Below, one piece after another: positions 4,964 to 23,699 of a stretch of DNA of 64,000 nucleotides. A program made the position numbers and the translations under genes. The notes beneath the pieces were generated by a model. That model did not search any database and had not been told where the DNA came from. It saw nothing but the letters and a program-made list of their open reading frames with translations. How positions within the stretch are numbered: position 1 is the stretch's first letter; every line of letters starts with the position of its first letter. Source of the stretch: Candidatus Bathyarchaeota archaeon (GTDB taxonomy: Archaea > Thermoproteota > Bathyarchaeia > Bathyarchaeales > Bathycorpusculaceae); assembly GCA_026014615.1 (NCBI GenBank), contig JAOZHZ010000025.1, forward strand, positions 1 to 64,000, in the 5' to 3' direction.

Positions 4964-6256
4964 ATGACTATTTTGAAAAATGAAGATTTGCGTCTGAATT
5001 CGGGAATAAATGGGGTGTGCTCTAAGGTTGGTTCTGTATTTGTTGTCAGCAATGGGTGCCCCGAGAACCGCATGGACGTGGCAAGGGCAGAGCGGTACTT
5101 GGTTGAAAACGGGTGGACAATTAACGCCGGCCTAGAGGATGCTGACCTTATTTTATTTAATGCCTGTGGGCGGTCCAGCAAAACCGAGAGCTACTCCATA
5201 GGCATAATCAAAGAAATTCAAAGCAAAATGCGGTCTGACCAGCAGTTAATTGTGTGGGGATGCCTGCCAAAAATTGACCTTGAAGGCTTACGTAAGGAGT
5301 ATGGGGGGCAGGTTTCTTTGGGGTCGGAGTTGCCCGAGCTTCAGAAAACGCTTGGTCTTCAGACGTCTATTGATGGGTCGTTTGCGAATTATTTAGGTCC
5401 TGTTTGGCCGATGAGTAAAAGTAACGCGCCTGATTTTCTTCGGTACGAGGGTTCACGGGTCAGTCAGACTTTGAAACGTGCTGCGATATGTTGGGATGAC
5501 TATTTGAATTCAAGGTTTAATCTTGTCCGAAGCAAGGACCCCTCTGTTTTTTACATTAAAATCTCCACTGGATGTATGAATAAATGTGCTTACTGTGCGG
5601 TGCGGTTAGCTCGAGGACGCACCCGCAGCAAACCGTTGGAGCGTGTGGTGAGTGAGTTTAAGTTGGGTTTACAGAAGGGTTATCGGAAGTTTAGTTTGAT
5701 GGGTACAGATCCGGGTTCTTACGGGGTGGATTTGGGCTGTAACCTTATGGATTTGCTTTGGGAGCTTACTGGTTTGGAGGGGGATTTTCGTATTTTTCTG
5801 CGGAATTTTCATCCGGGCTACGTGAAGAAGATGCAGAGCGACTTCATCGAGGTTTTGAAGACAAAGAAGATTAAGTATGTGGAGATTGCTTCTGAGTCCG
5901 GAAGCAACCGTGTTTTGAATTTGATGAACCGCAACTACACAATCGAAGAATACAAGCGTTTAGTGGAGACCCTGCGGGTGGCTCATCCACCGTTGATTAT
6001 TCGTACGCAGGTGATTGCGGGTTTTCCCACCGAGACTGAGGAGGAGTTTGAGCAAACTTTGAAGTTGTTGGATGATGTGGCGTTTGATTATGTTGAGGTT
6101 TACGAGTTTTCTGCGCGTCCGGGAACGGCTGCTGCGGTGATGGAGCCTCAGGTGCCTGACGCGGTGAAGCGGCAGCGTTTTCTTAGGCTGTACCGCAAGG
6201 CGGTGCTTAATCGTACGCCTCGGAAAGTCAAGAACATTCTGCTTAACCGCATGTAG
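4964..6256 (+). CDS. MiaB-like radical SAM methylthiotransferase
   Basis: 430 residues in the methylthiotransferase arrangement. The N-terminal UPF0004-type domain has the three cluster cysteines C32 (SNGCPENRMD), C68 (FNACGRSS) and C100 (VWGCLPK). The radical SAM domain has C204-x3-C208-x2-C211 (STGCMNKCAYC) and conserved downstream motifs (GTDPGSYG, IASESGSNRVLNLMNRNYT, RTQVIAGFPTETEEEF). The archaeal family member acting on tRNA t6A37 (e-MtaB type) normally ends with a TRAM RNA-binding domain; this protein stops about when that domain would begin, so its substrate is less certain. The opening about 20 residues form a short extension before the first conserved strand. It stands alone in its orientation. 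Confidence 0.85.
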   Translation: MTILKNEDLRLNSGINGVCSKVGSVFVVSNGCPENRMDVARAERYLVENGWTINAGLEDADLILFNACGRSSKTESYSIGIIKEIQSKMRSDQQLIVWGCLPKIDLEGLRKEYGGQVSLGSELPELQKTLGLQTSIDGSFANYLGPVWPMSKSNAPDFLRYEGSRVSQTLKRAAICWDDYLNSRFNLVRSKDPSVFYIKISTGCMNKCAYCAVRLARGRTRSKPLERVVSEFKLGLQKGYRKFSLMGTDPGSYGVDLGCNLMDLLWELTGLEGDFRIFLRNFHPGYVKKMQSDFIEVLKTKKIKYVEIASESGSNRVLNLMNRNYTIEEYKRLVETLRVAHPPLIIRTQVIAGFPTETEEEFEQTLKLLDDVAFDYVEVYEFSARPGTAAAVMEPQVPDAVKRQRFLRLYRKAVLNRTPRKVKNILLNRM

Positions 6257-10458: not shown

Positions 10459-10516
10459 AACCCGCACCAAACCCCACCCCAACCCAACCAAAAAACTGCG
10501 GGAGAGAAAAAACAAA

Positions 10517-13500
10517 TTGACTGAACTCACAAAAGAAGACACCCACCTGCTCCTCAAAACCTTCTTCCAAGAAAAAGGCCTAGTCCGCCAACACCTAGAC
10601 AGCTACAACGAATTCATCGACCACGGACTACAAGAAGTCGTCGACGAAGTCAACGAAATCCCCATCGAAATCCCAGAAAACCCCTACAGCGTAAAACTAG
10701 GCCAAATCTGGGTCATCGACCCCCAAAGCCGCATCACAGGACCCTACGCCACCGAAGTCGACGGAACCAAACACGAAATCTACCCCATGGAAGCACGCCT
10801 CAGAAACCTCGCATACGCCGCACCCATCGCCCTCGAAATGACCCCCGTCATCGACGGCAGAGAACAAGACACAGAACTCGTCTACATCGGTAACATCCCA
10901 GTTATGCTCAAAAGCAAACTCTGCTTCCTCAGCCAACTCAGCAAAGAAGAACTCATCGCAGCAGGCGAAGACCCCGACGACTCAGGCGGCTACTTCGTCG
11001 TAAACGGGTCTGAACGAGTCATCGTCGCCATGGAAGACCTCGCACCAAACCGAGTAATAATAGACGTAGACGAAAAAGGCACCAGCCCCGTCTACCAAGC
11101 AAAAATCTTCAGCACAACAGTCGGCTTCCGCGCACGTATCGAACTCAAACTCAAAGCCGACGACGCCATATACGTCTCCATGCCCGGCGTCCCAACAGAA
11201 ATCCCCTTCATCGTCATCATGCGTGCACTCAACCTAGAAAAAGACAAAGACATCGCCGAAGCGGTGTCCCTTGACAAAGACATCCAAAAAGAACTCGCCG
11301 CTTCGTTTGAAAAAGCGGTCGGCGTGGACACACCCCAAGACGCCATCCTATTCATCGGAAACCGCGTTGCACATGGGCAAGTAGAGGAATACCGTGTGCA
11401 AAAGGCGGAAACTGCTCTGGACAAGAACTTTTTACCGCACTTGGGCAGAACCGAAAAACAACGCGAAGACAAAGCAATATTCCTTGGCGAGATGGCAAGC
11501 CGCGTTATCCAACTTAAAATGGGTAGACGCCAAGAAGACGATAAGGACCACTTCAAGAACAAACGGCTGCGCCTTGCAGGTCCACTTCTGGCAGACTTGT
11601 TCCGCGTTGCCTTCAGAAACTTAACTCGCGACATAAAATACCAGTTGGAACGTATAGGCGTCAAAGGACCGATAATCACTGTATCCGCAGCCGTGCGGCC
11701 AGGTATAATTACTGAACGTTTCCAGCATGCGCTTGCAACGGGCAACTGGGGCAGAGGCAGAGTCGGCATCACCCAACTTCTAGACCGAACAAACTACATA
11801 TCCACGCTGAGTCACCTGCGCAGGTTGCAGTCGCCGCTCAGCAGAAGCCAACCTAACTTCGAAGCCCGCGACTTACACCCAACTCATTGGGGACGACTAT
11901 GCCCCAACGAGACACCTGAAGGCTCCAACTGTGGGCTCGTAAAGAACCTCGCCTTATCCTCCTCAATTTCGGTAGGTGTGAACCCTGACAAAATCAGGCA
12001 ACTCCTATTCGAAATGGGCACCGTTCCGTCACATGAAGTCACCGAAGCCCTAAAGATTAATGGCGCCAAAGTTTTCGTTGACGGCAACATCATAGGCTTC
12101 TGCGGCAACCCTCATGATATGGTTAAGAGTTTCCGAGAAAAACGCCGCACAGGCGAAATCTCAACCGAAGTCAACGTCACTTACTTCTCCAAGGATCAAG
12201 CTGAATCCGAAGAGCTTCACACAAACTGTGACGAAGGAAGAGTCCGAAGACCTCTCATAATTGTTGAAAACGGCATACCCAAGCTACAGGCGAAGCATCT
12301 GGAACGAATCGCTCTGGGCGAATGGTCTTGGGAAGACTTAGTTAAAAACGGTTTAATTGAATACTTAGACGCTTCAGAAGAAGAAAACGCTTACGTTGCC
12401 ATATCCCTTGACAAAGTAGGTCCTGAACATACACATGCAGAAATCGCCACTTTCACGATTTTGGGCATTTGCGCTTCCACAATTCCTTATCCTGAACATA
12501 ACCAGTCACCACGTAACTCTTATCAAGCAGCCATGGCAAAACAGGCATTGGGCATTTACGGCACAAACTTCCAGAACCGCGTAGACTCCCGCTCCCACAT
12601 TCTGCACTATCCTCAGGCTCCTCTTGTAGAAACTGAGCTTATGGAGGTCATGGGTTACAAGCAGCGCCCCACCGGCCAGAACTGTGTTGTCGCCGTGTTG
12701 AGCTTCGAAGGCTACAACATGGAAGACGCCATCATATTCAACAAAGCATCTATAGAACGTGGTTTAGCCCGCTCAACCTTCTTCCGCATTTACGAAGCTG
12801 AATGCCGCCAATACCTTGGTGGGCTCAAGGACAAGTTTACTGTTCCTGAACCAGGTACACGCGGCTACCGTGGCGAACAGTATTATAGGCTTCTGGAACC
12901 TGACGGCATAATTAGCCTTGAATCATCCGTCACTGGCGGAGATGTGCTTATCGGCAGAATCAGTCCACCCAGATTCCTCGAAGAATACAAAGAATTCGAA
13001 GTCAAAGGTCCCAGTATGCGTGACACATCCGCTGATATGCGTCCATCAGAAAACGGCGTAGTTGACGCCATCTTTGTTACTGAATCAGGCGAAGGCAGCA
13101 AGCTCGTTAAAGTTCGTGTCCGCGACCAACGGGTTCCAGAATTAGGTGACAAGTTCGCGTCACGCCACGGACAGAAAGGCGTCATCGGCTTGATTGTTCC
13201 ACAGGAAGATCTGCCTTTCACAGATGAGGGCATAGTTCCTGACCTAATCATCAACCCGCATGCTATACCTTCAAGAATGACCATCGGGCAATTCATAGAA
13301 TCTCTGTCTGGTAAATGCGCGGCTGCCAGAGGAAAACCAGTTGATGGAACACCCTTCACTAATGAGGGACCCACTGAAATCCGCAACAGCCTCGTAAAAT
13401 TGGGCTTTAGCCACACAGGCAGCGAAGTATTCTATAACGGAACCACAGGCCAAAAATTCGTTGCTGACGTCTTCGTGGGCATCGTTTATTACCAGAAACT

Positions 13501-13882
13501 GCACCACATGGTCGCTGACAAGATTCACGCCAGAGCTCGCGGACAAGTTCAAATGCTTACCCGACAGCCAACTGAAGGTCGCGCTCGCGGTGGTGGTCTC
13601 AGATTTGGAGAAATGGAAAGAGACTACCTTATCGGGCACGGCGCAGCTATGCTTCTTCGGGACAGGTTGCTAGAAGAATCCGACAAGTACACCCTGTACA
13701 TCTGCGAGAACTGTGGACAAATTGCCTACTATGACATGAAGCAGCGCAAATACGTCTGCAAGATCTGTGATGAGAAAGCTAAAGTAGCTCCAGTAATTGT
13801 TTCATACGCGTTTAAGTTGCTGTTGCAGGAGCTTCAAAGCTTGTGTATTACACCTAAACTTAAACTTAAGGAGAGGGCATAA
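10517..13882 (+). CDS. rpoB: DNA-directed RNA polymerase subunit B (unsplit B''+B')
   Basis: 1121 residues, an undivided archaeal Rpo2. Clear landmarks are the N-terminal lobe (YFVVNGSERVIVAMEDLAPN), fork region (RRLQSPLSRSQPNFEARDLH, LCPNETPEGSNCGLVKNLAL), SYNM-equivalent (SFEGYNMEDAIIFNKAS), hybrid-binding region (GDKFASRHGQKGVIG) and clamp (GLRFGEMERDYLIGHGAA), ending with a C-terminal zinc motif (CENCGQ...CKICDE). It forms the catalytic core with subunit A. TTG 10517 is chosen as start because a GGGAGAGA site lies just upstream. The stop overlaps the rpoA start by one base. The first about 700 bp use almost only C- or A-ending codons, unlike the rest of the gene. Confidence 0.97.
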   Translation: MTELTKEDTHLLLKTFFQEKGLVRQHLDSYNEFIDHGLQEVVDEVNEIPIEIPENPYSVKLGQIWVIDPQSRITGPYATEVDGTKHEIYPMEARLRNLAYAAPIALEMTPVIDGREQDTELVYIGNIPVMLKSKLCFLSQLSKEELIAAGEDPDDSGGYFVVNGSERVIVAMEDLAPNRVIIDVDEKGTSPVYQAKIFSTTVGFRARIELKLKADDAIYVSMPGVPTEIPFIVIMRALNLEKDKDIAEAVSLDKDIQKELAASFEKAVGVDTPQDAILFIGNRVAHGQVEEYRVQKAETALDKNFLPHLGRTEKQREDKAIFLGEMASRVIQLKMGRRQEDDKDHFKNKRLRLAGPLLADLFRVAFRNLTRDIKYQLERIGVKGPIITVSAAVRPGIITERFQHALATGNWGRGRVGITQLLDRTNYISTLSHLRRLQSPLSRSQPNFEARDLHPTHWGRLCPNETPEGSNCGLVKNLALSSSISVGVNPDKIRQLLFEMGTVPSHEVTEALKINGAKVFVDGNIIGFCGNPHDMVKSFREKRRTGEISTEVNVTYFSKDQAESEELHTNCDEGRVRRPLIIVENGIPKLQAKHLERIALGEWSWEDLVKNGLIEYLDASEEENAYVAISLDKVGPEHTHAEIATFTILGICASTIPYPEHNQSPRNSYQAAMAKQALGIYGTNFQNRVDSRSHILHYPQAPLVETELMEVMGYKQRPTGQNCVVAVLSFEGYNMEDAIIFNKASIERGLARSTFFRIYEAECRQYLGGLKDKFTVPEPGTRGYRGEQYYRLLEPDGIISLESSVTGGDVLIGRISPPRFLEEYKEFEVKGPSMRDTSADMRPSENGVVDAIFVTESGEGSKLVKVRVRDQRVPELGDKFASRHGQKGVIGLIVPQEDLPFTDEGIVPDLIINPHAIPSRMTIGQFIESLSGKCAAARGKPVDGTPFTNEGPTEIRNSLVKLGFSHTGSEVFYNGTTGQKFVADVFVGIVYYQKLHHMVADKIHARARGQVQMLTRQPTEGRARGGGLRFGEMERDYLIGHGAAMLLRDRLLEESDKYTLYICENCGQIAYYDMKQRKYVCKICDEKAKVAPVIVSYAFKLLLQELQSLCITPKLKLKERA

Positions 13883-16800
13883 TGGCATCTGAGGAACTAA
13901 TTCACAAAGTAGTTGACGAAATCAGCTTCGGCTTAATTTCACCAAAAGACCTGAGAAAGCAGTCAGTTGTTGAAATCCAAACCCCTGACACCTACGACGA
14001 AGACGGCGCCCCAATCACAGCTGGACTCATGGACGGAAGACTCGGCACTCTTGAGCCACGGCAACGCTGCAAAACCTGCGGCAACACCGCCATCCGCTGC
14101 CCCGGACACTTTGGACACATCGAACTCGCTGTGCCCATCGTGCATATTGAATTCACAAAGATAATCTTCGACCAGTTGAGAGCCACCTGCCGTACTTGTG
14201 GTCGCATATTGTTGTCCGATGAGGCAGCAAAGAAAACCCGCGCCAGAATCGAACGATACATGGAACTCTTAGGGCTCATCCCCGACGCAATTTACAAAGA
14301 AATTATCCAGGAAATCAAGACCAAACAGTGTCCTCACTGTGCATCCAGCCAATTCAAGATAACTTTTGAGAAGCCCACAAAATTCATTGAGCAGACCGAT
14401 GCAGGCTCTGAACCGTTAACTCCCAGTATGATTCGCGAACGCTTAGAGCGTATTAGCGATGAAGACTTGGAAATCTTGGGTTTCAACCCCAAAGTTGCCC
14501 GACCAGAATGGATGGTTTTACAGGTTTTGCCTGTGCCGCCAGTTTATGTGCGTCCCTCCATCACTTTAGAGTCAGGCATTCGCTCTGAGGACGACTTAAC
14601 CCACAAACTGGTAGACATCATCCGCATTAATCAACGGCTCAAGGAGAACATGGAAGCCGGTGCACCAACACTCATTATCCAAGACTTGAGCGAACTTTTG
14701 CAGTACCACGTAACAACTTACTTTAACAACGAAGCCTCAGGCATTCCGCCAGCCAGACACCGCTCAGGAAGAGCGTTAAAGACCATTTCTCAGCGTCTAA
14801 AAGGCAAGGAAGGCCGGTTCAGAAGCAACCTTTCAGGCAAACGTGTAGACTTCTCTGCACGTACAGTCATTTCTCCTGACCCGAACTTGGACATAAACGA
14901 AGTCGGTGTCCCGCAAGATGTTGCTATGAGGCTTTCAGTGCCTGAGAAAGTTACCGCTTGGAACATCGAAGAGCTAAAGAAGCTGGTTGTTAACGGACCT
15001 GAAAACTATCCGGGTGCCCTTTACATTATTCGACCTGACGGTAAACGCATTCGCTTGGAGTTCGTGGTTGACCGCACCAAAATTGCTGAAGCCGTTGAAC
15101 TTGGCTTCGTGATTGAGCGGCACCTGAAGAATGGTGACATCGCAATTTTCAATCGGCAGCCTTCGCTTCACCGCATGTCCATCATGGCGCACTACGTCCG
15201 TGTCTTGCCCTACAAAACTTTCCGCATGCACCTCTGTGTTTGCCCACCTTACAACGCTGACTTTGACGGCGACGAAATGAACCTTCACGTTCCACAAAGC
15301 GAAGAAGCCCGCACAGAAGCATTACTGCTGATGCAGGTTCAAGACCAAATTCTTTCTCCACGATTCGGTGGACCCATCATCGGCGCCATCAGAGACTTCA
15401 TCACCAGCGCATACTACTTCACTCGAAGAGGCAACTATCTAACCCGCAACGAAGTAAACCGCCTCCTAACCGCAACTGGGTATCTTGGGGCTCTTCCTGA
15501 ACCCGCAAAAAAGGACCCTGTACCGATGTGGTCTGGCAAACAAATCTTCAGTTTGTTTATGCCAAAAACGTTGAACTACGTTTTGAAGGCTAACATTTGC
15601 CAAGGATGCGTTAAATGTAAAGAAGAGGAATGTGAGCACGACGCATACGTTGTTGTCAGAAACGGTGAGCTAGTTTCTGGCATCATTGACAGGCGCAGCA
15701 TTGGCTCGGAGCAGTCGGAAAGTTTGCTTCACAGGATAATCAAAGATTACGGCACTCAAACAGGTCGCGAATTCCTCAACAAGATTACTCGTATGCTGAA
15801 ACTTTTCATTTCAATGCGTGGTTTCAGCTACACCTACGAACAACTGGTGCTTTCGCCTAAAGCAAGAAACCGAATCGCCAAGACCATGGACCGCATCCAA
15901 AAGAAAATCGATGAACACATAGAAAACTTCAGCAACGGCACGCTACCACGGCTGCCTGGTCAAACTTTGGAGGAATCCTTCGAAATTTATGTCATGCACG
16001 AACTTGCAACTGCCAGAGACGAAGCAGGCAAAATCGCAGACGACGACTTCACACTCGAAAACGCAGGTATTGTCATGACTCGAACTGGCGCCAGAGGCTC
16101 AAGCCTAAACATTGGGCAAATGGCAGCTTGTGTTGGGCAGCAGTCAGTCCGAGGTAAAAGAATCCTTAGAGGATACGCTGGACGCGCGTTGCCACACTTC
16201 ACTCCAGGTGACCCACGCCCGAGAGCACGAGGCTTCGTGTATAACTCTTATCAGACTGGGTTGGATGCGATTGAATTTTTCTTCCACGCTATGGGCGGTC
16301 GTGAAGGTCTAGTTGACACTGCCGTGCGTACGCAACAGAGCGGTTACATGCAGCGTAGGCTCATTAACGCACTTGAACACATACGTTTGGAATACGACGG
16401 CACTGTTAGAGACTCCGCGGGTGACATCATTCAGTTCAGGTATGGCGAGGACGGTGTTGACCCTGCCAAGAGCGACCACGGTAAAGCGGTAAACGTTAGC
16501 AGATTAATGGATGCACTTAACATCAGCGAAGAAAAAGGCACTCCCGCCACGTCCGATTACATCAAAAAGCAACTGAAAGAAGTCGAAGGTCAACTAACTC
16601 CAATACTTATGGACCAGCTTAAACAGCAACTAACCAAGGGCAAATTCACCAAGAAAGGCGTTGACAAAGCCATAACCACCACCGCAGAACGTTACAAGCG
16701 GGCTTTAATGGAACCCGGCGAAGCAGTAGGCATTGTCGCAGCACAGTCGATTGGGGAACCTGGTACACAGATGACTCTTAGAACCTTCCACTATGCAGGA

Positions 16801-17721
16801 GTCAAAGAACAAAACGTCACTCTGGGTCTGCCGCGTCTGATTGAAATCGTGGACGCAAGAAGAATTCCCTCTACGCCTATTATGACCATCTACTTGACTG
16901 GTGAATTCCGCAAGAGCAAAGAAGGCGCCGTCGAGATTGCCCGCCACGTAATTTACACTTCACTGGAGAATTTAGCGTCGGAGATTTACGAAGACCCAAT
17001 CAACGAGGAAATCGTTGTTGAACTAAACAAGACCATGATGGAAGACCGCTCGATAACGATAGAGGAATTGGAAGAACGTGTGGAACTGCCGAACGCAACA
17101 ACCAAAGCCAAAGGCGACAACGCACTTACAATCAAACCTAAGAAAGTAGAGACAATCAAGAAGCTGCTGGAAAAAGTCACTAACTTCCACGTTAAAGGCG
17201 TACCCGACATCAACCGTGTACTCGTAACCCAAGAAGAAAACGGCGAGTGGGTTATCCGCACGGACGGCTCCAACCTACCTAAAGTGCTGGAGATTGTAGG
17301 CGTTGACACCTCACGTACAACAACCAACAACGTACATGAAATCGCGAAAACCTTGGGTATAGAAGCAGCAAGAAACGCCCTGATTAACGAAGCCAAAGGC
17401 GTGCTGGAGGAACAAGGCTTAGACGTGGACGTTCGCCACGTTATGCTCGTCGCGGACATGATGTCTTCAAACGGTGAAGTTCAGCAGATCGGCAGACACG
17501 GCATCAGTGGCAAGAAATCCAGTGTCTTGGCACGAGCAGCGTTCGAAATTACGGTTCCCAACATTGTAGAAGCAGCCATTAAAGGTGAAAGTGACCCGCT
17601 GGCAGGCGTGACCGAAAACGTAATAGTCGGTCAATCTATTCCGATTGGCACAGGCTTGGTAGAGTTATACATGTCAACATTTGAAAAGCAAGACAAAGCA
17701 GGAGTAAAAACAGAAACATGA
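13882..17721 (+). CDS. rpoA: DNA-directed RNA polymerase subunit A (A' and A'' unsplit)
   Basis: 1279 residues, long enough to contain both A' (Rpo1N) and A'' (Rpo1C) in one chain. The N-terminal zinc-binding clamp is visible (RCKTCGNTAIRCPGHFGH, near residue 62), and the Mg-binding catalytic loop NADFDGDEMNLHVPQ is near residue 457. The bridge-helix and trigger-loop part follows in the A''-type section (AVGIVAAQSIGEPGTQMTLR near residue 955). Most archaea split this gene; an unsplit form is known from Thaumarchaeota-related lineages. It overlaps rpoB by 1 bp and rpl30e by 4 bp, so the operon is translationally coupled. Confidence 0.97.
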   Translation: MASEELIHKVVDEISFGLISPKDLRKQSVVEIQTPDTYDEDGAPITAGLMDGRLGTLEPRQRCKTCGNTAIRCPGHFGHIELAVPIVHIEFTKIIFDQLRATCRTCGRILLSDEAAKKTRARIERYMELLGLIPDAIYKEIIQEIKTKQCPHCASSQFKITFEKPTKFIEQTDAGSEPLTPSMIRERLERISDEDLEILGFNPKVARPEWMVLQVLPVPPVYVRPSITLESGIRSEDDLTHKLVDIIRINQRLKENMEAGAPTLIIQDLSELLQYHVTTYFNNEASGIPPARHRSGRALKTISQRLKGKEGRFRSNLSGKRVDFSARTVISPDPNLDINEVGVPQDVAMRLSVPEKVTAWNIEELKKLVVNGPENYPGALYIIRPDGKRIRLEFVVDRTKIAEAVELGFVIERHLKNGDIAIFNRQPSLHRMSIMAHYVRVLPYKTFRMHLCVCPPYNADFDGDEMNLHVPQSEEARTEALLLMQVQDQILSPRFGGPIIGAIRDFITSAYYFTRRGNYLTRNEVNRLLTATGYLGALPEPAKKDPVPMWSGKQIFSLFMPKTLNYVLKANICQGCVKCKEEECEHDAYVVVRNGELVSGIIDRRSIGSEQSESLLHRIIKDYGTQTGREFLNKITRMLKLFISMRGFSYTYEQLVLSPKARNRIAKTMDRIQKKIDEHIENFSNGTLPRLPGQTLEESFEIYVMHELATARDEAGKIADDDFTLENAGIVMTRTGARGSSLNIGQMAACVGQQSVRGKRILRGYAGRALPHFTPGDPRPRARGFVYNSYQTGLDAIEFFFHAMGGREGLVDTAVRTQQSGYMQRRLINALEHIRLEYDGTVRDSAGDIIQFRYGEDGVDPAKSDHGKAVNVSRLMDALNISEEKGTPATSDYIKKQLKEVEGQLTPILMDQLKQQLTKGKFTKKGVDKAITTTAERYKRALMEPGEAVGIVAAQSIGEPGTQMTLRTFHYAGVKEQNVTLGLPRLIEIVDARRIPSTPIMTIYLTGEFRKSKEGAVEIARHVIYTSLENLASEIYEDPINEEIVVELNKTMMEDRSITIEELEERVELPNATTKAKGDNALTIKPKKVETIKKLLEKVTNFHVKGVPDINRVLVTQEENGEWVIRTDGSNLPKVLEIVGVDTSRTTTNNVHEIAKTLGIEAARNALINEAKGVLEEQGLDVDVRHVMLVADMMSSNGEVQQIGRHGISGKKSSVLARAAFEITVPNIVEAAIKGESDPLAGVTENVIVGQSIPIGTGLVELYMSTFEKQDKAGVKTET

Positions 17722-18059
17722 TAGACATAGATAAAGCATTAGCATCAGCCGTGAAAACTGGCAAAGTTTCTTTCGGCGCCAACTCGGCATTGCTGAACGC
17801 GAAGACAGGTAAAGCTAAGATGATTGTTTTGGCTTCAAACTGTCCAAAAATCATAAAAGACGAGATAGAATACTATGGTAAACTCTCAAAAGTTCCCGTT
17901 ATGACCTATAAAGGTGCTTCCATGGATTTAGCCATAGTCTGCAGCAAACTCTTCATTATCTCGGCACTCAGCGTCAGGGAACCCGGAGACTCGGAGATTC
18001 TGAAAGCCGTGGAAATGGAATACTACGAGAATCCAGATGTTGTTGGAGGAACTGAATGA
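17718..18059 (+). CDS. rpl30e: Ribosomal protein L30e
   Basis: 113 residues of the L7Ae/L30e RNA-binding fold. Typical segments are IDKALASAVKTGKVSFGANS, the KMIVLASNCPK strand-turn, and the C-terminal DLAIVCSKLFIISALSVREPGDSEIL. It is normally about 100 residues; a short acidic tail is added. It binds 23S rRNA kink-turn-like sites in the large subunit. Its position after the RNA polymerase A gene is conserved in archaea. ATG 17718 overlaps the rpoA stop (ATGA). Confidence 0.95.
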   Translation: MIDIDKALASAVKTGKVSFGANSALLNAKTGKAKMIVLASNCPKIIKDEIEYYGKLSKVPVMTYKGASMDLAIVCSKLFIISALSVREPGDSEILKAVEMEYYENPDVVGGTE

Positions 18060-18493
18060 CAACCGGCATAAAAATCACATGCGATGAAATGCGTTACATC
18101 GCTTTGTTTGAAAGCATAAGCGGCGCCAGCGTAAAAGACTGCATCATCGACGAAGCAGAATCACGTGCCATCTTTATTGTTAATCCTGGTCAAGTGGGTG
18201 TTGCAATCGGTAAAGGCGGCAGAAACATTCATACCCTTGAAAAGATGACTGGCAAAAAGCACGAAATCATCGAGTACTCAGAGGATCCCGTGCATTTCAT
18301 AAAGAACTCTCTTAAACCTGCTCAGGTCCGTGAAGTACGCATCACCGAAAAGACCGACGGCAAAAAGATGGCGGTCGTAACCATCAACCCCAAAGACAAG
18401 GGCATTGCAATCGGTAAAAACGGTAAGAACGCCGAGCGTTTACGCTTTTTAGCAAAACGGTATTTCGATATTCAGAACGTCAGCATCACTTAG
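18056..18493 (+). CDS. nusA: Archaeal NusA-like KH-domain protein
   Basis: 145 residues with two KH RNA-binding domains and no S1 or N-terminal domain, as in archaeal NusA. The GXXG-type loops are visible as VGVAIGKGGRNIHTLEKM (first KH) and KGIAIGKNGKNAERLRFLAK (second KH). It is thought to act in transcription elongation and termination. It overlaps rpl30e by 4 bp. In many archaea rps12 and rps7 follow; here the operon ends and a convergent transporter begins. Confidence 0.95.
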   Translation: MTTGIKITCDEMRYIALFESISGASVKDCIIDEAESRAIFIVNPGQVGVAIGKGGRNIHTLEKMTGKKHEIIEYSEDPVHFIKNSLKPAQVREVRITEKTDGKKMAVVTINPKDKGIAIGKNGKNAERLRFLAKRYFDIQNVSIT

Positions 18494-18495
18494 CT

Positions 18496-18510
18496 GCCCC
18501 TCCTTGGGGC
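18496..18510 (+). terminator. Hairpin after nusA
   Basis: A GCCCC-TCCTT-GGGGC stem-loop starts 2 bp after the nusA stop. It may mark or protect the transcript end. T-rich patches follow only from about 18572. Confidence 0.4.
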
Positions 18511-18618
18511 GCTAGGCGATTTGGCATCGCTACTTCTAGTTTTGCGTATGAACCAAACCTGTCCCTGAAAGACATTTTGTTTTTTGATGGCGCGCAACTG
18601 TGAACTTGTGCGTTTCGG

Positions 18619-19968
18619 CTATTTTGAAATTTCTTCCAGCGTTTTCCCTTTGGTTTCAGTTCCCAGCAACGCAATGGTCACGGCACCCACAAAGTGAATC
18701 AAAGCAAACACTGTAAACGCGGCAGCTAATCCACCGTAAGCGTACAGAATCGGTGTGACTGTTGGTGCAATTACCCCTGCAAGTCGCCCCATACTCGCGG
18801 CGGCACCTGCGCCCGTTCCTCTTATCCTTGTGGGGTAAAGTTCAGGTGTGTATGCGTATAGCGCTGACCATGCGCCCAAGTTAAAGAAAGATATCACAAT
18901 GCTCCAGAACAGAATCGAATTGGTGTCCATTGCTAAACTAAGTAGGGCGCTGCCGACGCCTGCGAAGGTGAGGTAGATTATGGCGATTTTTTTGCGGCCT
19001 ACCCTGTCAAGAAGCAACGCTGCTGTGTAATATCCGGGTACCTGTGCCAAAGTAACAATCAGCACCCACTCGATTGACCTGACAACCGTGAAGTTTAGGG
19101 TGCCATAGTAGAAAGTGGGTAGCCAGATGAATATGCCGTGGTAGGTGTAAACCAGAACCGCCCACGCGACCCAAAGCATAACTGTTCTTTTTCGGAAAAC
19201 CGTGGAAAAAAGCTCCTTGAGTGCAGCTGAGGTGCTTCTTTTTTCGGTTTGAGGCGCGGTCAGTTGGGTTTCTTGGAAATCCTCTTTGACGAGGCTGTGT
19301 TTTTTGAGCAGTTTGAGTGCTTGTTGAGTTTTTCCTTTGAGTTGCAGGTACCGTATTGATTCTGGCAAAAAGAAGTAAACGACTGGAATCAGAACAAGCG
19401 GAATTAACGAGACAAGGAAGGTTAATCGCCAACCGATTATGGGAAACAAAAAGAACGGAAAAGCCAGCGACAGCAATGCGCCGTAAACCCATGAAGCTTC
19501 CACTAAGCCCAAAAAGCGTCCCCTGAACTTTGCTGGAATGTATTCTGAAATGTAAACTCCGGGTTGTGGGAGCGCGCCGCCTAGTCCGATGCCTGCGAGG
19601 AACCGCAGCACAGCCATGGTGGTGGGGTCAGGTGCGACGGCGTTTAGTGCCGTGAAAACGGTCATGGTTGTGATGGTGAAGAGAAGCGTGTTTCGTCTTC
19701 CTATGCGGTCGGCGAGGATGCCGCAGGTTAAGGCTCCCACGAACATGCCTATGTAACCGCTGCTCAGAAGCAGACCTGCGATTAGGGGTTGCTGGCTTAA
19801 GCCGAACTCCGCGATTATGGGCGTGTAGACTGCCCCGATGAGCAAGACGTTCATGGCGGTGAAGGCGTAGATGAGGCTGCTTACCGCAAATAAGCTATAG
19901 TGGAATCTGCCCAGTTTCGCTTGCTCCACCTGAGACTCAATGGACCCACTCATAGGCGTACCACCCAC
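18619..19968 (-). CDS. Major facilitator superfamily transporter (sugar/organic-acid type)
   Basis: 449 residues with twelve predicted membrane helices in two six-helix halves. The signature loop between helices 2 and 3 is present (GILADRIGRRNTLL), with the matching loop in the second half (LLDRVGRKKIA). The motif FLAGIGLGGALPQPGVYISEYIPAKFRGRFLG is typical of the metabolite:H+ symporter branch that includes aromatic-acid and sugar carriers. The substrate cannot be read from sequence. It is convergent with the RNA polymerase operon and stands alone. Confidence 0.9.
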   Translation of the reverse strand: MGGTPMSGSIESQVEQAKLGRFHYSLFAVSSLIYAFTAMNVLLIGAVYTPIIAEFGLSQQPLIAGLLLSSGYIGMFVGALTCGILADRIGRRNTLLFTITTMTVFTALNAVAPDPTTMAVLRFLAGIGLGGALPQPGVYISEYIPAKFRGRFLGLVEASWVYGALLSLAFPFFLFPIIGWRLTFLVSLIPLVLIPVVYFFLPESIRYLQLKGKTQQALKLLKKHSLVKEDFQETQLTAPQTEKRSTSAALKELFSTVFRKRTVMLWVAWAVLVYTYHGIFIWLPTFYYGTLNFTVVRSIEWVLIVTLAQVPGYYTAALLLDRVGRKKIAIIYLTFAGVGSALLSLAMDTNSILFWSIVISFFNLGAWSALYAYTPELYPTRIRGTGAGAAASMGRLAGVIAPTVTPILYAYGGLAAAFTVFALIHFVGAVTIALLGTETKGKTLEEISK

Positions 19969-20087
19969 AACCTCTAGCAGATACGGAAAAGAGTTAACTC
20001 CGCTATTACTTTTGGTGGTTAGAACTATTTAGGTTTCCTAAAATAAACGTGAAAGACGCAAAGAAGGGTTTTTGGAAGCTGCTTGTT

Positions 20088-20702
20088 TTATTCTTCTTCC
20101 GCTGTTTCTTCCTCTTCCATTTCTTCATCTGCTGCTTTTTCTTCTTCTGAACGCAAAAGCATGTCTATGAGGATTTTCTGGTCTACTTCCGCTCGGGTTC
20201 TCCAGTCCAGATAAAGCTGTTCTTTGTCGTCCTGCTGCAGGTAGCCGTAGCGGATGTAGCGGTCGAGGTTTAAGCCGACTCTCCAACCTGCGATTTTCTC
20301 GCCCAAAAGCTCCTCCACATCTCTGCGCGATGCTTGCCCTTTCTTGCTGATGATGTATGATATGGTTATGGCTAAGCCTGCTAAGTCGTCGATTCTCCAG
20401 CCAATCATCTTTGCCTCTTTAGGCTGCAAATCACCCCGCAGGGTAACGTAAAACCGCGCTTTATCCAACTCGTCTAACGTCGGCTTCTCGGGCGTTTTGC
20501 CTTCTTCGTAAACGGTTTTAACTTGCAAATCCAGCGGCTTCAAAAAATCGTCCATCACATCCAGAACTTTGGGGTAGTCGGAGCCGAGGGCTTTGTGGAG
20601 TTCCCAGCCTTTCACGCCGGGTTTCTGGTGCCTTCGGTAGAACAGGATGTGTGTGGCGCGTTTCATCTTTGATGCGTATGTTGCTTTTCTTTTGCTGCTC
20701 AA
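20088..20702 (-). CDS. KITE/ScpB-like winged-helix partner of SMC-like ATPase (inferred)
   Basis: About 205-214 residues. The N-terminus is very basic. A central segment (HILFYRRHQKPGVKGWELHKALG) and a later one (RRDVEELLGEKIAGWRVGLNLDRYIRYGYLQQ) look like two winged-helix units. The tail is an acidic E-run. It is the last gene of an operon with an SMC-like ATPase and a kleisin-like protein; in condensin-type complexes this position belongs to ScpB/KITE subunits. That assignment rests on context and general fold, not a recognised signature. TTG 20702 overlaps the upstream stop (TTGA) with GAGGCG 9 nt before it; TTG 20732 is an alternative start. Confidence 0.55.
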   Translation of the reverse strand: MSSKRKATYASKMKRATHILFYRRHQKPGVKGWELHKALGSDYPKVLDVMDDFLKPLDLQVKTVYEEGKTPEKPTLDELDKARFYVTLRGDLQPKEAKMIGWRIDDLAGLAITISYIISKKGQASRRDVEELLGEKIAGWRVGLNLDRYIRYGYLQQDDKEQLYLDWRTRAEVDQKILIDMLLRSEEEKAADEEMEEEETAEEE

Positions 20703-21538
20703 TCTTTTTCGCCTCGTTTCCACTTCTGCCAACTTTCAAACGAGAGGTTAATGGGCACCGAAATAGCTTGCTTGTCCAGCTTCGCCACGGGATCTTCGAG
20801 GGGCATGATGTACACTTCTTCTTCCAGCGGGATAACCTCTAGCGTCGCGTAACCGTATGTGACTAAGAAGCTGGTTATGTAGGCTCGGTGGACGGTTTGC
20901 TCGTAGGTTTCCGCGTCTACCCAGTCCATATAGAACAGCTTGCCGTCTTTGCCTTGGGTTTGGGTTTTGGCTTTGAGTTCGTTCCAGTATCGGTCGAGCT
21001 CCGCTGAAAAGGCTTCGTCCCGCAGTACACTCTGGTCAACCAGTTCTTCCCAGCTGGCTGTTCCCGCAGCGACCTCTGCAACCATCGGCTGCTCCCACCG
21101 TTGCTTAATCGGCGTTAACGCGTCCCAGTACCGCAAGGCATCTGCCAAGCTTCGCACAGTAAGCTGTTCTTGCTCTACTATGGGGTGCCATGCGTGCAGG
21201 AAAACGTTGACCATTTCTTGTTTGTTGTTCTGCATGATTTTCTCTTCCAGCAAAAACGGGTCCGTGTAAAGCGATGTGCTACGCTGTTTCACCCAATCAC
21301 TCTGCAGCTTTATCACGGTTGCCAAGTGGTGGATGGCTTCTGCGTCAAGATTCAGCTCTTCTGGTTGGTCCCATTCGGGGAAGTATTCTTGTACGATGAG
21401 TATGATTTCGTCTACGTTTAGTAGGAAGGGGTCTACGGTGTGGTCTTCGATGCCTTTCATCATTTCAATTACGCGTTCCAGCCTGTCTTTGCCCAGCTTC
21501 TTAGCTTCCTTGTGAGTCTTGGGTTTTTGCGCCTGCAT
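20699..21538 (-). CDS. Kleisin-like partner of SMC-like ATPase (inferred)
   Basis: About 279 residues starting MQAQKPKTHKEAKKLGKDR. The ATG at 21538 comes one base after the stop of the SMC C-terminal part, so this start is preferred over an upstream alternative at 21613. The N-terminal third (VDPFLLNVDEIILIVQEYF) has the short, mostly helical look of a kleisin/ScpA N-domain. The middle is helical and tryptophan-rich, and the end is a beta-rich block (EEEVYIMPLEDPVAKLD). Tight coupling between an SMC ATPase and a winged-helix gene is the main support for a kleisin role. It has no signal peptide or enzyme motif. Confidence 0.55.
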   Translation of the reverse strand: MQAQKPKTHKEAKKLGKDRLERVIEMMKGIEDHTVDPFLLNVDEIILIVQEYFPEWDQPEELNLDAEAIHHLATVIKLQSDWVKQRSTSLYTDPFLLEEKIMQNNKQEMVNVFLHAWHPIVEQEQLTVRSLADALRYWDALTPIKQRWEQPMVAEVAAGTASWEELVDQSVLRDEAFSAELDRYWNELKAKTQTQGKDGKLFYMDWVDAETYEQTVHRAYITSFLVTYGYATLEVIPLEEEVYIMPLEDPVAKLDKQAISVPINLSFESWQKWKRGEKD

Positions 21539-21539
21539 T

Positions 21540-21938
21540 CTACTGTACCTCGCGTACTGCTGATTTGCCTTCCACGTTTTGGACGGCGACGATGTTGGCG
21601 TTTTCCTGTGCAAAAGTGACTTGGCTGGGCGTTATGACGATGTATTGGGCGTTGGCGTCTTTGATGGTTGAGATGAGGATTTTGGCTATCATTTCGCGGT
21701 TGCGGGGGTCCATGTGAATGTCATATTCGTCCACTGCTCGGAGAGGTGACCGCACATGCTGCTGCAGGGCTAACAGGAAGCTCATGGTTGCGGTGGTTCG
21801 TTCGCCGCCGCTTTGCGTGTAAGCATCCAATGGCACGGGTCTTCCGCCTTTGAAGCCCACTAAAATTTCCAGTCCCGCCGTTTCGATGTCCTGAGCGTTA
21901 GCCAAGCGCACTTCGCCTGCGGCTCGGGTTTGACCCAT
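21540..21938 (-). CDS. SMC-like ATPase, C-terminal ATPase half
   Basis: This segment carries the second half of an SMC-type head: the ABC signature QSGGERTTATMSFLLALQQH and the Walker B/D-loop PLRAVDEYDIHMDPRN. It is in the same frame as the upstream N-terminal half (21978-23465), separated only by one TAG codon at 21978-21980 and 13 sense codons. Those 13 codons (TLLLRVNGEYQRI) also look like SMC sequence, so the real protein should run through. If it is translated separately, ATG 21938 with AGAGGA close upstream is the likely start. It is followed after one base by the kleisin-like gene. Confidence 0.8.
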   Translation of the reverse strand: MGQTRAAGEVRLANAQDIETAGLEILVGFKGGRPVPLDAYTQSGGERTTATMSFLLALQQHVRSPLRAVDEYDIHMDPRNREMIAKILISTIKDANAQYIVITPSQVTFAQENANIVAVQNVEGKSAVREVQ

Positions 21939-21977
21939 AATCCTCTGGTACTCACCGTTAACGCGCAGCAGCAGGGT

Positions 21978-21980
21978 CTA
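21978..21980 (-). other. In-frame amber codon inside the SMC-like gene
   Basis: TAG lies in frame between WRNVM and TLLLRVNGEYQRIM. Both sides belong to one SMC-like reading frame. The alternatives are a nonsense mutation, a sequencing error, a recoded amber, or a split gene with reinitiation. Confidence 0.85.
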
Positions 21981-23465
21981 CATGACGTTGCGCCAGCTTT
22001 GCATACGCGTTGAAACCTCTTCGAGGGCTTTCTGGCGGTTTTCTGCGACCATCTGCGCCTTCTCCTTCAGCTCAAGGTAGAGTTTGCTGTACGACTCGTA
22101 TTGGCGTTCAATGTCTTCAGATACGCCAGCCAGCGCGGCTAAGTGCCCGTCGGTTAAGCGGATTTCGTCTTGAATGTCTGCCGCGTTTTTAGGCACGGCT
22201 ATTCTTGCACCTGACTGGGATGCCTTGGCTATTGACGTGTCCAAGCTGGCTTGCGCGTTTCTGATTGTGGTTTCCAGCTTTTTAAGTTCTTTAACGGCGT
22301 TTTCTTTTCGGTATTCAAGTAGCGCCAGCTGGATTTTACGGTCTACCACTTGTAGGGTGATTTTATCAGCTTTCTCTTCTGTTGCCGCGATTTGAGATTG
22401 GGTGTCTCGGGCTTGCTCATGAACACTGGTAAGCTGTTTGTGCGCGTTTTCTACGAGTTCCCGTAGACTTTGGGGTCGCAGAAGCTTAATCTGGATTCCC
22501 GCCTTGTCGCTGACAGCCTGTTCCAGCATTTCGGCTTCTTTAAGCAGCTTCTCCACCAAAGAAACCGTTGACTCTTCCGCGGCTATTTGGTATTCAAGCT
22601 TTAGGCGTTCTTCAAAAAGCGCCTTGTTTTCGCCTTTCAGTTTGTCCTGCTGCTTGCCCTGTTTCTCCACCTGCTCGGCGTTGGTTGCTGTTTCTTTTTC
22701 GATGCGCTCTAAGGTCTGTTGCAGTTTCTGCTTGTCCGCTTCGAGCTCTTTGACTGCGTTTTCTTTGCGTTCCACTTCTGCCCACGACAGTTCCCTCTCC
22801 AGAAACCGCCGCTTGGTCTGCAGCTGCTTTTTTTCTTGGAACTTGTCGTATTGTTCTCGCCAGTAGTTCAGGGTTTGCTCGGCGGATTCAAGCAGTTTAC
22901 CCACGGATTCTGACTGGCTCAAGATGCGGGTGAGCTTTTGTTGGGCTTGTACGACGTTTTCGCGAAACGGCTCCAACCCAACAGCGGCTTCCACCATACG
23001 CAGCTTGTCTATGTTGCTTAAAACGCTGAATTGTTCCACCATGTTTTGGTGCATGATGATGAGCATGTTGTCGGGGTCTACGCCGAACCTGCCCAGCAAC
23101 CGCTGCACTTCCTGTTTGTTTGCGGCTTTGTTTTCTAAATCAAACCAGTATTGTCCGTCGCGGCGGAGGTTGCGCGCGAGGAAAAGCTGGTCTTTGCTGT
23201 ACTTGGGTACGGGGCGTTTACCGTGTTGTTTACTGTTGTCCAGTACGACGGTGACACGGGCTTGGTCTTTGCCCCATCGGATGAGGTTGCTGAGTTTTTT
23301 ACTACGTTCCGTGTATGTCTGTCCTAAAGCTACGGAAATCGCGAGCAGAAGGCTGGATTTTCCTGCGCCGTTAGGTCCCACGATTAGGTTTACGCCTTGT
23401 TTGAAGGATACCCTAGCGTACTCGTAGCTCATGAAATTTTCAAGGATAACTTCAGAGATTAACAT
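21978..23465 (-). CDS. SMC-like ATPase, N-terminal ATPase half and coiled coil
   Basis: About 495 residues. The start MLISEVILENFMSYEYARVSF leads to Walker A (IVGPNGAGKSSLLLAISVALG), and a Q-loop-like region follows (FGVDPDNMLIIMHQNMVEQF). Then comes a long heptad-like coiled coil rich in E, K and Q, with no clear hinge domain, so the arms are much shorter than in canonical SMC. The overall build resembles small SMC5/6- or Rad50-like ATPases. ATG 23465 is chosen because it begins the conserved strand; 30 upstream residues are cysteine-rich and unlike the family. It is the first gene of an SMC-kleisin-KITE type operon. The C-terminal ATPase half lies behind an in-frame TAG. Confidence 0.85.
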   Translation of the reverse strand: MLISEVILENFMSYEYARVSFKQGVNLIVGPNGAGKSSLLLAISVALGQTYTERSKKLSNLIRWGKDQARVTVVLDNSKQHGKRPVPKYSKDQLFLARNLRRDGQYWFDLENKAANKQEVQRLLGRFGVDPDNMLIIMHQNMVEQFSVLSNIDKLRMVEAAVGLEPFRENVVQAQQKLTRILSQSESVGKLLESAEQTLNYWREQYDKFQEKKQLQTKRRFLERELSWAEVERKENAVKELEADKQKLQQTLERIEKETATNAEQVEKQGKQQDKLKGENKALFEERLKLEYQIAAEESTVSLVEKLLKEAEMLEQAVSDKAGIQIKLLRPQSLRELVENAHKQLTSVHEQARDTQSQIAATEEKADKITLQVVDRKIQLALLEYRKENAVKELKKLETTIRNAQASLDTSIAKASQSGARIAVPKNAADIQDEIRLTDGHLAALAGVSEDIERQYESYSKLYLELKEKAQMVAENRQKALEEVSTRMQSWRNVM

Positions 23466-23699
23466 CTTAGTTTTTTGCCTCTTTAGGCAGCGAAAAGTAT
23501 AGGTGAATTCTCTATTATTAAAACAAATTGCACAAGAGCAGCGAAATCTCTGCATGTTTAGACGGAGTTTCTTTTGCTGACGATTCAGGATTTTTCGTCA
23601 TTTTTCAACGTGTTTATAACTGCTTTATCCATGCTTCTGCTGCGGTTCCTTTGTATTTTTCTGTTTTCAGATTTTATCTTGTTTTTGCCTCGTTTTTCT

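What the first reader, a model, noticed from the sequence alone, without database searches (positions are those of the whole stretch)
21540..23465. In-frame amber codon splits a short SMC-like ATPase
Seen directly: TAG at 21978-21980 lies in frame between the N-terminal half (Walker A) and the C-terminal half (QSGGERTT signature and Walker B) of one SMC-like head. The 13 codons after the TAG also read as SMC sequence (TLLLRVNGEYQRI), so the protein was or is continuous. TAG could be one transition from a TGG tryptophan codon. TAG is also an ordinary stop elsewhere in the window (for example at 6254, 9502 and 18491), which argues against wholesale recoding but not against occasional readthrough or pyrrolysine.
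Basis: partly seen in the sequence, partly recalled or inferred. Interest (0 to 1): 0.8.

Follow-up and report, generated by a model that had tools for sequence, protein, structure and literature searches.

The report
Stop codon breaks archaeal SMC gene
In one uncultured archaeon, the gene for a small chromosome-handling motor protein carries a premature stop codon where many relatives have glutamine; it looks like an ordinary recent mutation or assembly error rather than a special genetic code, though the intact gene family itself resembles part of the eukaryotic Smc5/6 machine.

Summary
The minus-strand gene 23465→21540 has an in-frame TAG at 21978-21980 (codon 496 of 641). The codons after it remain SMC sequence, 84-95% identical in protein to five of six congeners.

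The amber-decoding reading is not supported. The site is Gln in 23 of 30 homologs fetched from related genomes (nearest: CAG) and in 31 of 80 named loci; Trp and stop occur in none. That points to CAG→TAG, not TGG. PylS reached cut-off in 0 of 40 genomes and PylD in 0 of 60, this one included. None of 41 tRNA matches reads UAG, but the inventory is incomplete. The same gene's natural terminator is also TAG, where four relatives end with TGA, TAG, TAG and TAA. An intact copy in the bin lies on a contig that looks like a second organism.

Best reading: a very recent nonsense lesion or a consensus error; reads must decide.

More interesting is the family: a hinge-less SMC whose best PDB matches are SMC5/6, with a neighbouring kleisin resembling Nse4, found in 78 of 80 named archaeal loci.

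The parts
21540..23465 (-). Gene for a short (641 codons) SMC-type ATPase, interrupted at codon 496; natural terminator TAG at 21540-21542
   Evidence: Translation; SMC_N over residues 3-630 when read through; best PDB profile hits SMC6 and SMC5
21978..21980 (-). In-frame TAG, codon 496; homologous column most often Gln
23355..23378 (-). Walker A, GPNGAGKS (residues 30-37)
   Evidence: G30, P31, N32, G33, G35, K36 and S37 invariant in the 41-row alignment A2
21798..21815 (-). ABC signature QSGGER (residues 551-556)
   Evidence: S552-R556 invariant
21726..21743 (-). Walker B region, LRAVDE (residues 575-580)
   Evidence: D579 and E580 invariant
21543..21938 (-). C-terminal half that could be made from the next in-frame ATG (132 aa, signature plus Walker B)
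   Evidence: ORF list; use of this start not tested
20699..21538 (-). Kleisin-like protein (279 aa), next gene of the operon, intact
   Evidence: Profile hits EID3 and Nse4 (E 3e-6 to 1e-4); Nse4 chains and the ScpA C-terminal winged helix lead the structure matches, in a weak model
20088..20732 (-). Third operon gene (214 aa), possible KITE-type winged-helix subunit, intact
   Evidence: Found in 75 of 80 named loci; no relevant PDB relative, so the assignment is inference

Best explanation
The TAG is an ordinary premature stop in an otherwise intact, strongly constrained archaeal SMC gene, not a recoded codon. Shown: the frame, the stop, the Gln-rich column, the conservation on both sides, and no PylS or PylD above cut-off. 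Inferred: the ancestral codon was CAG, changed by one C-to-T transition. It is either a very recent nonsense mutation in the sampled strain or population, or a wrong base in the metagenome consensus; I put these near 55:45, a judgement. If real, the truncated product (495 aa: Walker A lobe plus both coiled-coil arms, no signature or Walker B) cannot form an ATPase head alone, so the complex would be off in that strain unless the C-half is made separately. The intact protein most likely dimerises through ATP at its heads and is bridged by the kleisin encoded next door to hold or move DNA, like other SMC-kleisin machines; that function is inference from homology.
For: No decay: C-part identity 84-95% to five of six congeners; dN/dS about 0.05 (G006) and 0.01 (G002) where it could be computed. 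Short branch, 0.081, inside the genus clade. No other internal stop and full-length alignment to G006, G001 and G002. Same gene's natural stop is TAG; G006, G001, G002 and C24 end there with TGA, TAG, TAG and TAA. PylS over cut-off in 0 of 40 genomes and PylD in 0 of 60; of 14 named control genomes 1 was over cut-off in each search. Interrupted copies occur elsewhere: 3 of 80 named loci. The gene is not universal: 50 of 60 genomes, own included, have a match at E 1e-97 or better, so loss may be tolerated.
Against: Two of the protein's 14 private residues (T497, L500) lie within four codons of the TAG (shuffle P 0.012, test chosen after seeing the cluster), so a single clean transition may not be the whole event. 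The column is variable (Gln in 31 of 80 named loci, Glu in 22), so CAG is an inference. tRNA detection is incomplete: no tRNA for Trp, Tyr or Asn was found, so a suppressor could be missed. Weak matches below the cut-off to PylS and PylD exist in most genomes searched (38 of 40 and 41 of 60) and also in the control genomes. The assembly is 88.8% complete and 7.4% contaminated. No reads were available.
Confidence: 0.87

Rival explanations
1. The TAG splits the gene into two cooperating polypeptides: an N-part with Walker A and coiled coil, and a C-part started from the ATG 14 codons downstream (21938) carrying signature and Walker B, which assemble into one head.
For: The cut lies in the last coiled-coil helix (452-512), with 18 residues between it and the first C-lobe strand. 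Both parts keep full conservation. AGAGG lies just upstream of the ATG (codons). PDB entry 1xew has two chains that match the two parts of the head separately (1xew_X 4-169, 1xew_Y 490-635).
Against: No relative has a stop at this site: 0 of 30 and 0 of 80. The AGAGG is only 3 nt from the ATG. Nothing shows selection for the split; a very recent lesion looks the same.
Confidence: 0.07
2. The TAG is translated, as pyrrolysine or by an amber-suppressor or readthrough mechanism inserting Gln or another residue.
For: Downstream sequence is conserved; the column is Gln-rich, so a Gln insertion would be tolerated.
Against: No PylS or PylD above cut-off; no CTA anticodon among 41 tRNA matches; TAG ends the same gene and nusA at the place where relatives stop; none of the homologs examined has TAG here.
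Confidence: 0.03
3. The gene is a dispensable pseudogene because an intact paralog on contig C24 does the work.
For: C24 encodes an intact 641-aa frame, 67% identical.
Against: C24 also carries a second RNA-polymerase-nusA stretch at 77% DNA identity and the same downstream pair, and its copy falls outside the genus clade: it looks like another organism in the bin, not a paralog.
Confidence: 0.03

Closest known systems
SMC5/6-related SMC of Archaea (Yoshinaga and Inagaki 2021, as mentioned in PMC9389158; the 2021 paper itself was not held)
   Same: SMC head motifs, archaeal, best PDB matches are eukaryotic SMC5 and SMC6
   Different: I could not compare with their sequences, so identity with that group is likely but unproven; this copy is broken by TAG
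Eukaryotic Smc5/6-Nse4 complex
   Same: Best PDB profile hits are SMC6 (215 bits) and SMC5 (195 bits), ahead of archaeal Smc (146 bits); neighbouring kleisin matches Nse4 and EID3
   Different: 571-682 aa in 41 sequences against 1069-1157 for the ten SMC5/6 chains listed; no globular hinge in the model; one such gene per operon rather than two; no Nse1/Nse3 match for the third gene
ASRP family (coalescin ClsN, Sph)
   Same: Short archaeal SMC-like ATPase
   Different: The vast majority of ASRPs have a zinc hook (PMC9389158); no CxxC in any of 41 sequences here; NCBIfam ASRP model scores 42 bits against a cut-off of 300
Canonical prokaryotic Smc-ScpA(B)
   Same: SMC plus kleisin with C-terminal winged helix; the best NCBIfam model is SMC_prok_A (167 bits), far under its cut-off of 729
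   Different: About half the length, no hinge in the model; the bin has a separate SMC-like open frame of 1182 aa on C26

Membership tests
Pyrrolysine (UAG) decoding | PylS present | tested here: not met
   TIGR02367: only match in own genome 33.8 bits against cut-off 178; 0 of 40 genomes over cut-off. Own genome is 88.8% complete
Pyrrolysine (UAG) decoding | PylD (biosynthesis) present | tested here: not met
   TIGR03911: 0 of 60 family genomes over cut-off, own genome included
Pyrrolysine (UAG) decoding | tRNA with CTA anticodon | tested here: inconclusive
   41 RF00005 matches, typed: none CTA; Trp, Tyr and Asn tRNAs were not found, so the list is incomplete
SMC superfamily | Walker A in the N-part, signature and Walker B in the C-part, joined by coiled coil | tested here: met
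Smc5/6 complex | SMC sequence nearest to SMC5/SMC6 | tested here: met
   Among PDB chains only: the ten best profile hits are SMC5 or SMC6. No tree with eukaryotic sequences was made; Foldseek ranks Smc6, archaeal Smc and Rad50 chains close together
Smc5/6 complex | Globular hinge between the coiled-coil arms | tested here: not met
   Model: helices 165-318 and 331-418 joined by a 12-residue low-confidence turn (mean pLDDT 85.8, pTM 0.58)
Smc5/6 complex | Nse4-type kleisin | tested here: met
Smc5/6 complex | Nse1/Nse3 KITE subunits | tested here: inconclusive
   Third gene found in 75 of 80 named loci but its profile found no relevant PDB relative; it was not folded
ASRP (ClsN/Sph) | Zinc hook CxxC | tested here: not met
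   0 of 41 sequences
ASRP (ClsN/Sph) | Score over the NCBIfam NF045487 cut-off | tested here: not met
   42.1 against 300 bits

The most novel reading that the evidence does not exclude
The intact form of this gene, with its two neighbours, is a minimal hinge-less archaeal Smc5/6-type machine: one short SMC, an Nse4-type kleisin and a possible KITE subunit, kept together from Bathyarchaeota to Nitrososphaeria, Hadesarchaea and Methanomethylicota. The eukaryotic Smc5/6-Nse4 core would then descend from such an archaeal operon rather than from canonical Smc-ScpA. The amber codon is only a local lesion in it.
Probability: 0.4. Interest if true: 0.65.

Novelty: new member of a known kind. Interest (0 to 1): 0.25.

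Why it matters
As an amber codon it matters little: it shows how an isolated stop in a metagenome assembly can look like recoding until homologs, the gene's own terminator and pyl genes are checked. The operon matters more. If the short SMC, Nse4-like kleisin and third protein act together, they offer a simple archaeal model for the origin of Smc5/6 and a test of whether an SMC machine needs a hinge.

Tried and rejected
Rejected: TGG origin (no Trp in the column); pyrrolysine; intact paralog rescue (C24 looks like a second organism); old pseudogene (no other lesion); coalescin/ASRP membership.

Led nowhere or weak: dN/dS of the C-part could be computed for only 3 of 15 pairs (the sixth congener, G005, was not in that script). 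The third gene's profile gave one irrelevant PDB hit (E 0.11). In one search five TAG-ended frames were tested; three (nusA, this gene, 4964-6256) had a relative in the fetched regions, two had none.

Papers: PMC9389158, parts 1-3 of 4 read; passages only of PMC9499178, PMC5228436, PMC7055376 and PMC10003631. Searches for Nse4 with archaea and kleisin (19 papers listed), SMC5 with Asgard and kleisin (none), SMC5 with archaea, kleisin and Bathyarchaeota (none), and at least four of kite, kleisin, archaea, SMC5 and Thaumarchaeota (38 papers, 12 listed) listed no title on an archaeal Nse4-like operon. This is not proof that it is unpublished; a paper on Kite proteins in Archaea (Palecek and Gruber 2015, seen only as a citation) bears on it and was not read. 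For pyrrolysine with Bathyarchaeota 31 papers matched (15 listed); I did not establish from them whether any Bathyarchaeota use it.

Stops elsewhere: 535 stop-to-stop frames of at least 120 aa from four related regions were matched to 84 kb of this contig; matches under 35% identity were dropped; 25,083 of 84,000 bases were covered. Of the stops inside matches, only 21980 was hit from all four regions. I judged the others to be antisense, shadow or leader frames from their position and single weak support, not one by one.

Full report
What is there. The window is contig C4 of a 2.63-Mb, 29-contig archaeal assembly, 88.8% complete and 7.4% contaminated. The nearest named loci are Candidatus Bathyarchaeota. 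On the minus strand, 23465 to 21540 encodes one 641-residue SMC-type protein whose only internal stop is TAG at codon 496, 21978-21980. It aligns end to end with three congeners (residues 1-641).

What the site was. One search found a match at E 1e-97 or better in 50 of 60 genomes and fetched 30 homologous loci. All 30 align through the site: 23 have Gln; the others are D, K, E, L, K, R and R; none has Trp or a stop there. One of the 30 is the C24 copy of this bin. The six congeners have CAG (G006), GAA (G002), CAA (G004), AAA (G001), CAG (G003) and CAA (G005). G006 is nearest in the tree. One C-to-T transition from CAG is the simplest path; TGG is not supported. Two private residues, T497 and L500, sit beside the stop. 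The protein has 14 private residues in all, against 19-33 in five congeners counted the same way, and two or more falling within four codons of the TAG has shuffle probability 0.012. The test was chosen after seeing the cluster, so it only hints at a compound event or a poor stretch of consensus.

Is the second half still constrained? The 145 codons after the TAG are 92.4, 94.5, 86.9, 93.8 and 84.1% identical in protein to congeners G006, G002, G004, G001 and G003; pairs among those five range from 80 to 92.4%. Where the calculation worked, dN/dS of this part was about 0.05 (G006) and 0.01 (G002). The gene's branch in the tree is short, 0.081. So the lesion is very recent, or not real, or the codon is read; conservation alone cannot choose.

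Is TAG read? Four results argue against it. First, the natural terminator of this same gene is TAG (21540-21542), and G006, G001, G002 and C24 stop at the same residue with TGA, TAG, TAG and TAA; nusA ends with TAG where G006 has TAG and C24 has TAA. Second, no PylS is over cut-off in this genome or in any of 40 genomes including it, and no PylD in 60 family genomes including it. Of 14 named control genomes 1 was over cut-off in each search. Matches below cut-off were common (38 of 40 and 41 of 60 genomes) and also occurred in the control genomes, which rang in 13 and 10 of 14 cases in all. Third, among 41 tRNA matches, typed without introns and, where needed, with introns, none has a CTA anticodon; no Trp, Tyr or Asn tRNA was found either, so this list is incomplete. 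Fourth, none of the homologs examined has TAG at this site.

Is there a back-up copy? Contig C24 holds an intact 641-aa frame, 67% identical. C24 also holds a second RNA-polymerase-to-nusA stretch, 77.4% identical over 7,992 aligned columns, and a second copy of the downstream pair. Its SMC copy lies outside the genus clade while the window copy lies inside it. C24 is most likely a second organism in the bin.

How unusual is a broken copy? Among 80 named loci, one has two in-frame stops (L091) and two show frame changes (L115, L142), 3 of 80. L014 and L091 are at the same record coordinates and are the same case. Ten of 60 genomes lack a strong match: seven have only weak matches to other SMC-like proteins and three none; some of these are incomplete, but others are listed at 92-97% completeness. 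Loss is therefore possible in nature, and an error in a metagenome consensus could equally give one stop.

What the protein is. Read through, it matches Pfam SMC_N over residues 3-630. A profile of 41 sequences has as its ten best PDB hits SMC6 and SMC5 chains (215 to 164 bits), ahead of archaeal Smc (146) and SMC2 (127); the single sequence also puts SMC5 and SMC6 chains first, then archaeal Smc. In NCBIfam, which names prokaryotic proteins, the best model is SMC_prok_A, 167 bits against a cut-off of 729. Foldseek puts Smc6 first but with archaeal Smc and Rad50 close behind, so the fold does not discriminate. The model (mean pLDDT 85.8, pTM 0.58) shows an ABC head, two coiled-coil arms and a bare turn at 319-330, with no globular hinge. 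No CxxC is present in any of the 41 sequences, which argues against the zinc-hook ASRP family (coalescin, Sph) described in PMC9389158 (three of four parts read); the NCBIfam ASRP model scores 42 against a cut-off of 300 bits. That paper mentions an archaeal SMC5/6-related SMC group from earlier work, the likely home of this protein; the earlier paper was not held. PMC10003631 (passages) repeats the idea that archaeal SMC diverged into canonical and SMC5/6-related forms.

Mechanism. The truncated product would keep the Walker A lobe and both coiled-coil arms but lose the signature and Walker B, so it could not make a working head alone (inference). The cut is in the last helix before the C-lobe; in PDB entry 1xew the two parts of a head are separate chains, and I recall the same for Rad50 entry 1f2u. 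A two-piece head therefore cannot be excluded if the ATG at 21938 is used; nothing supports it beyond geometry and conservation. The intact complex most likely works like other SMC-kleisin machines.

Verdict. The interest is low for the amber codon and moderate for the operon.

Noticed in passing
window 20088-21538; L086-L165: The gene next to the SMC looks like an Nse4-type kleisin and is followed by a conserved third gene; 78 and 75 of 80 named loci carry them.
   Followed up: partly
G000:C24 (L005-L008) against window 10515-23473: A second RNA-polymerase-nusA region and a second SMC operon in the bin at about 68-77% DNA identity: C24 is probably a contaminant from a related genus; it also shares stretches with contig C29.
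   Followed up: partly
L014 1501-3390 (same record coordinates as L091): Another broken copy of the same gene: TAG and TAA three codons apart in the coiled coil, otherwise one open frame.
   Followed up: partly
L115 near 3671; L142 near 1745: Frame changes in two further named homologs.
   Followed up: no
L079 308-392: A tRNA-Sec (anticodon TCA) with a T.T mismatch in the acceptor stem, a feature reported for Bathyarchaeota tRNA-Sec in PMC9499178 (passage).
   Followed up: partly
window 21966-21980: Codons 497 and 500 beside the TAG are private to this sequence; L500 replaces an acidic residue found in 28 of 30 homologs.
   Followed up: partly
G000:C24 42115-42233 and G000:C29 29573-29691: Similar intron-bearing tRNA genes on C24 and C29; ARAGORN types the C29 one as Leu(CAA) and the C24 one as Ser(CGA), possibly an intron-placement ambiguity.
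   Followed up: no
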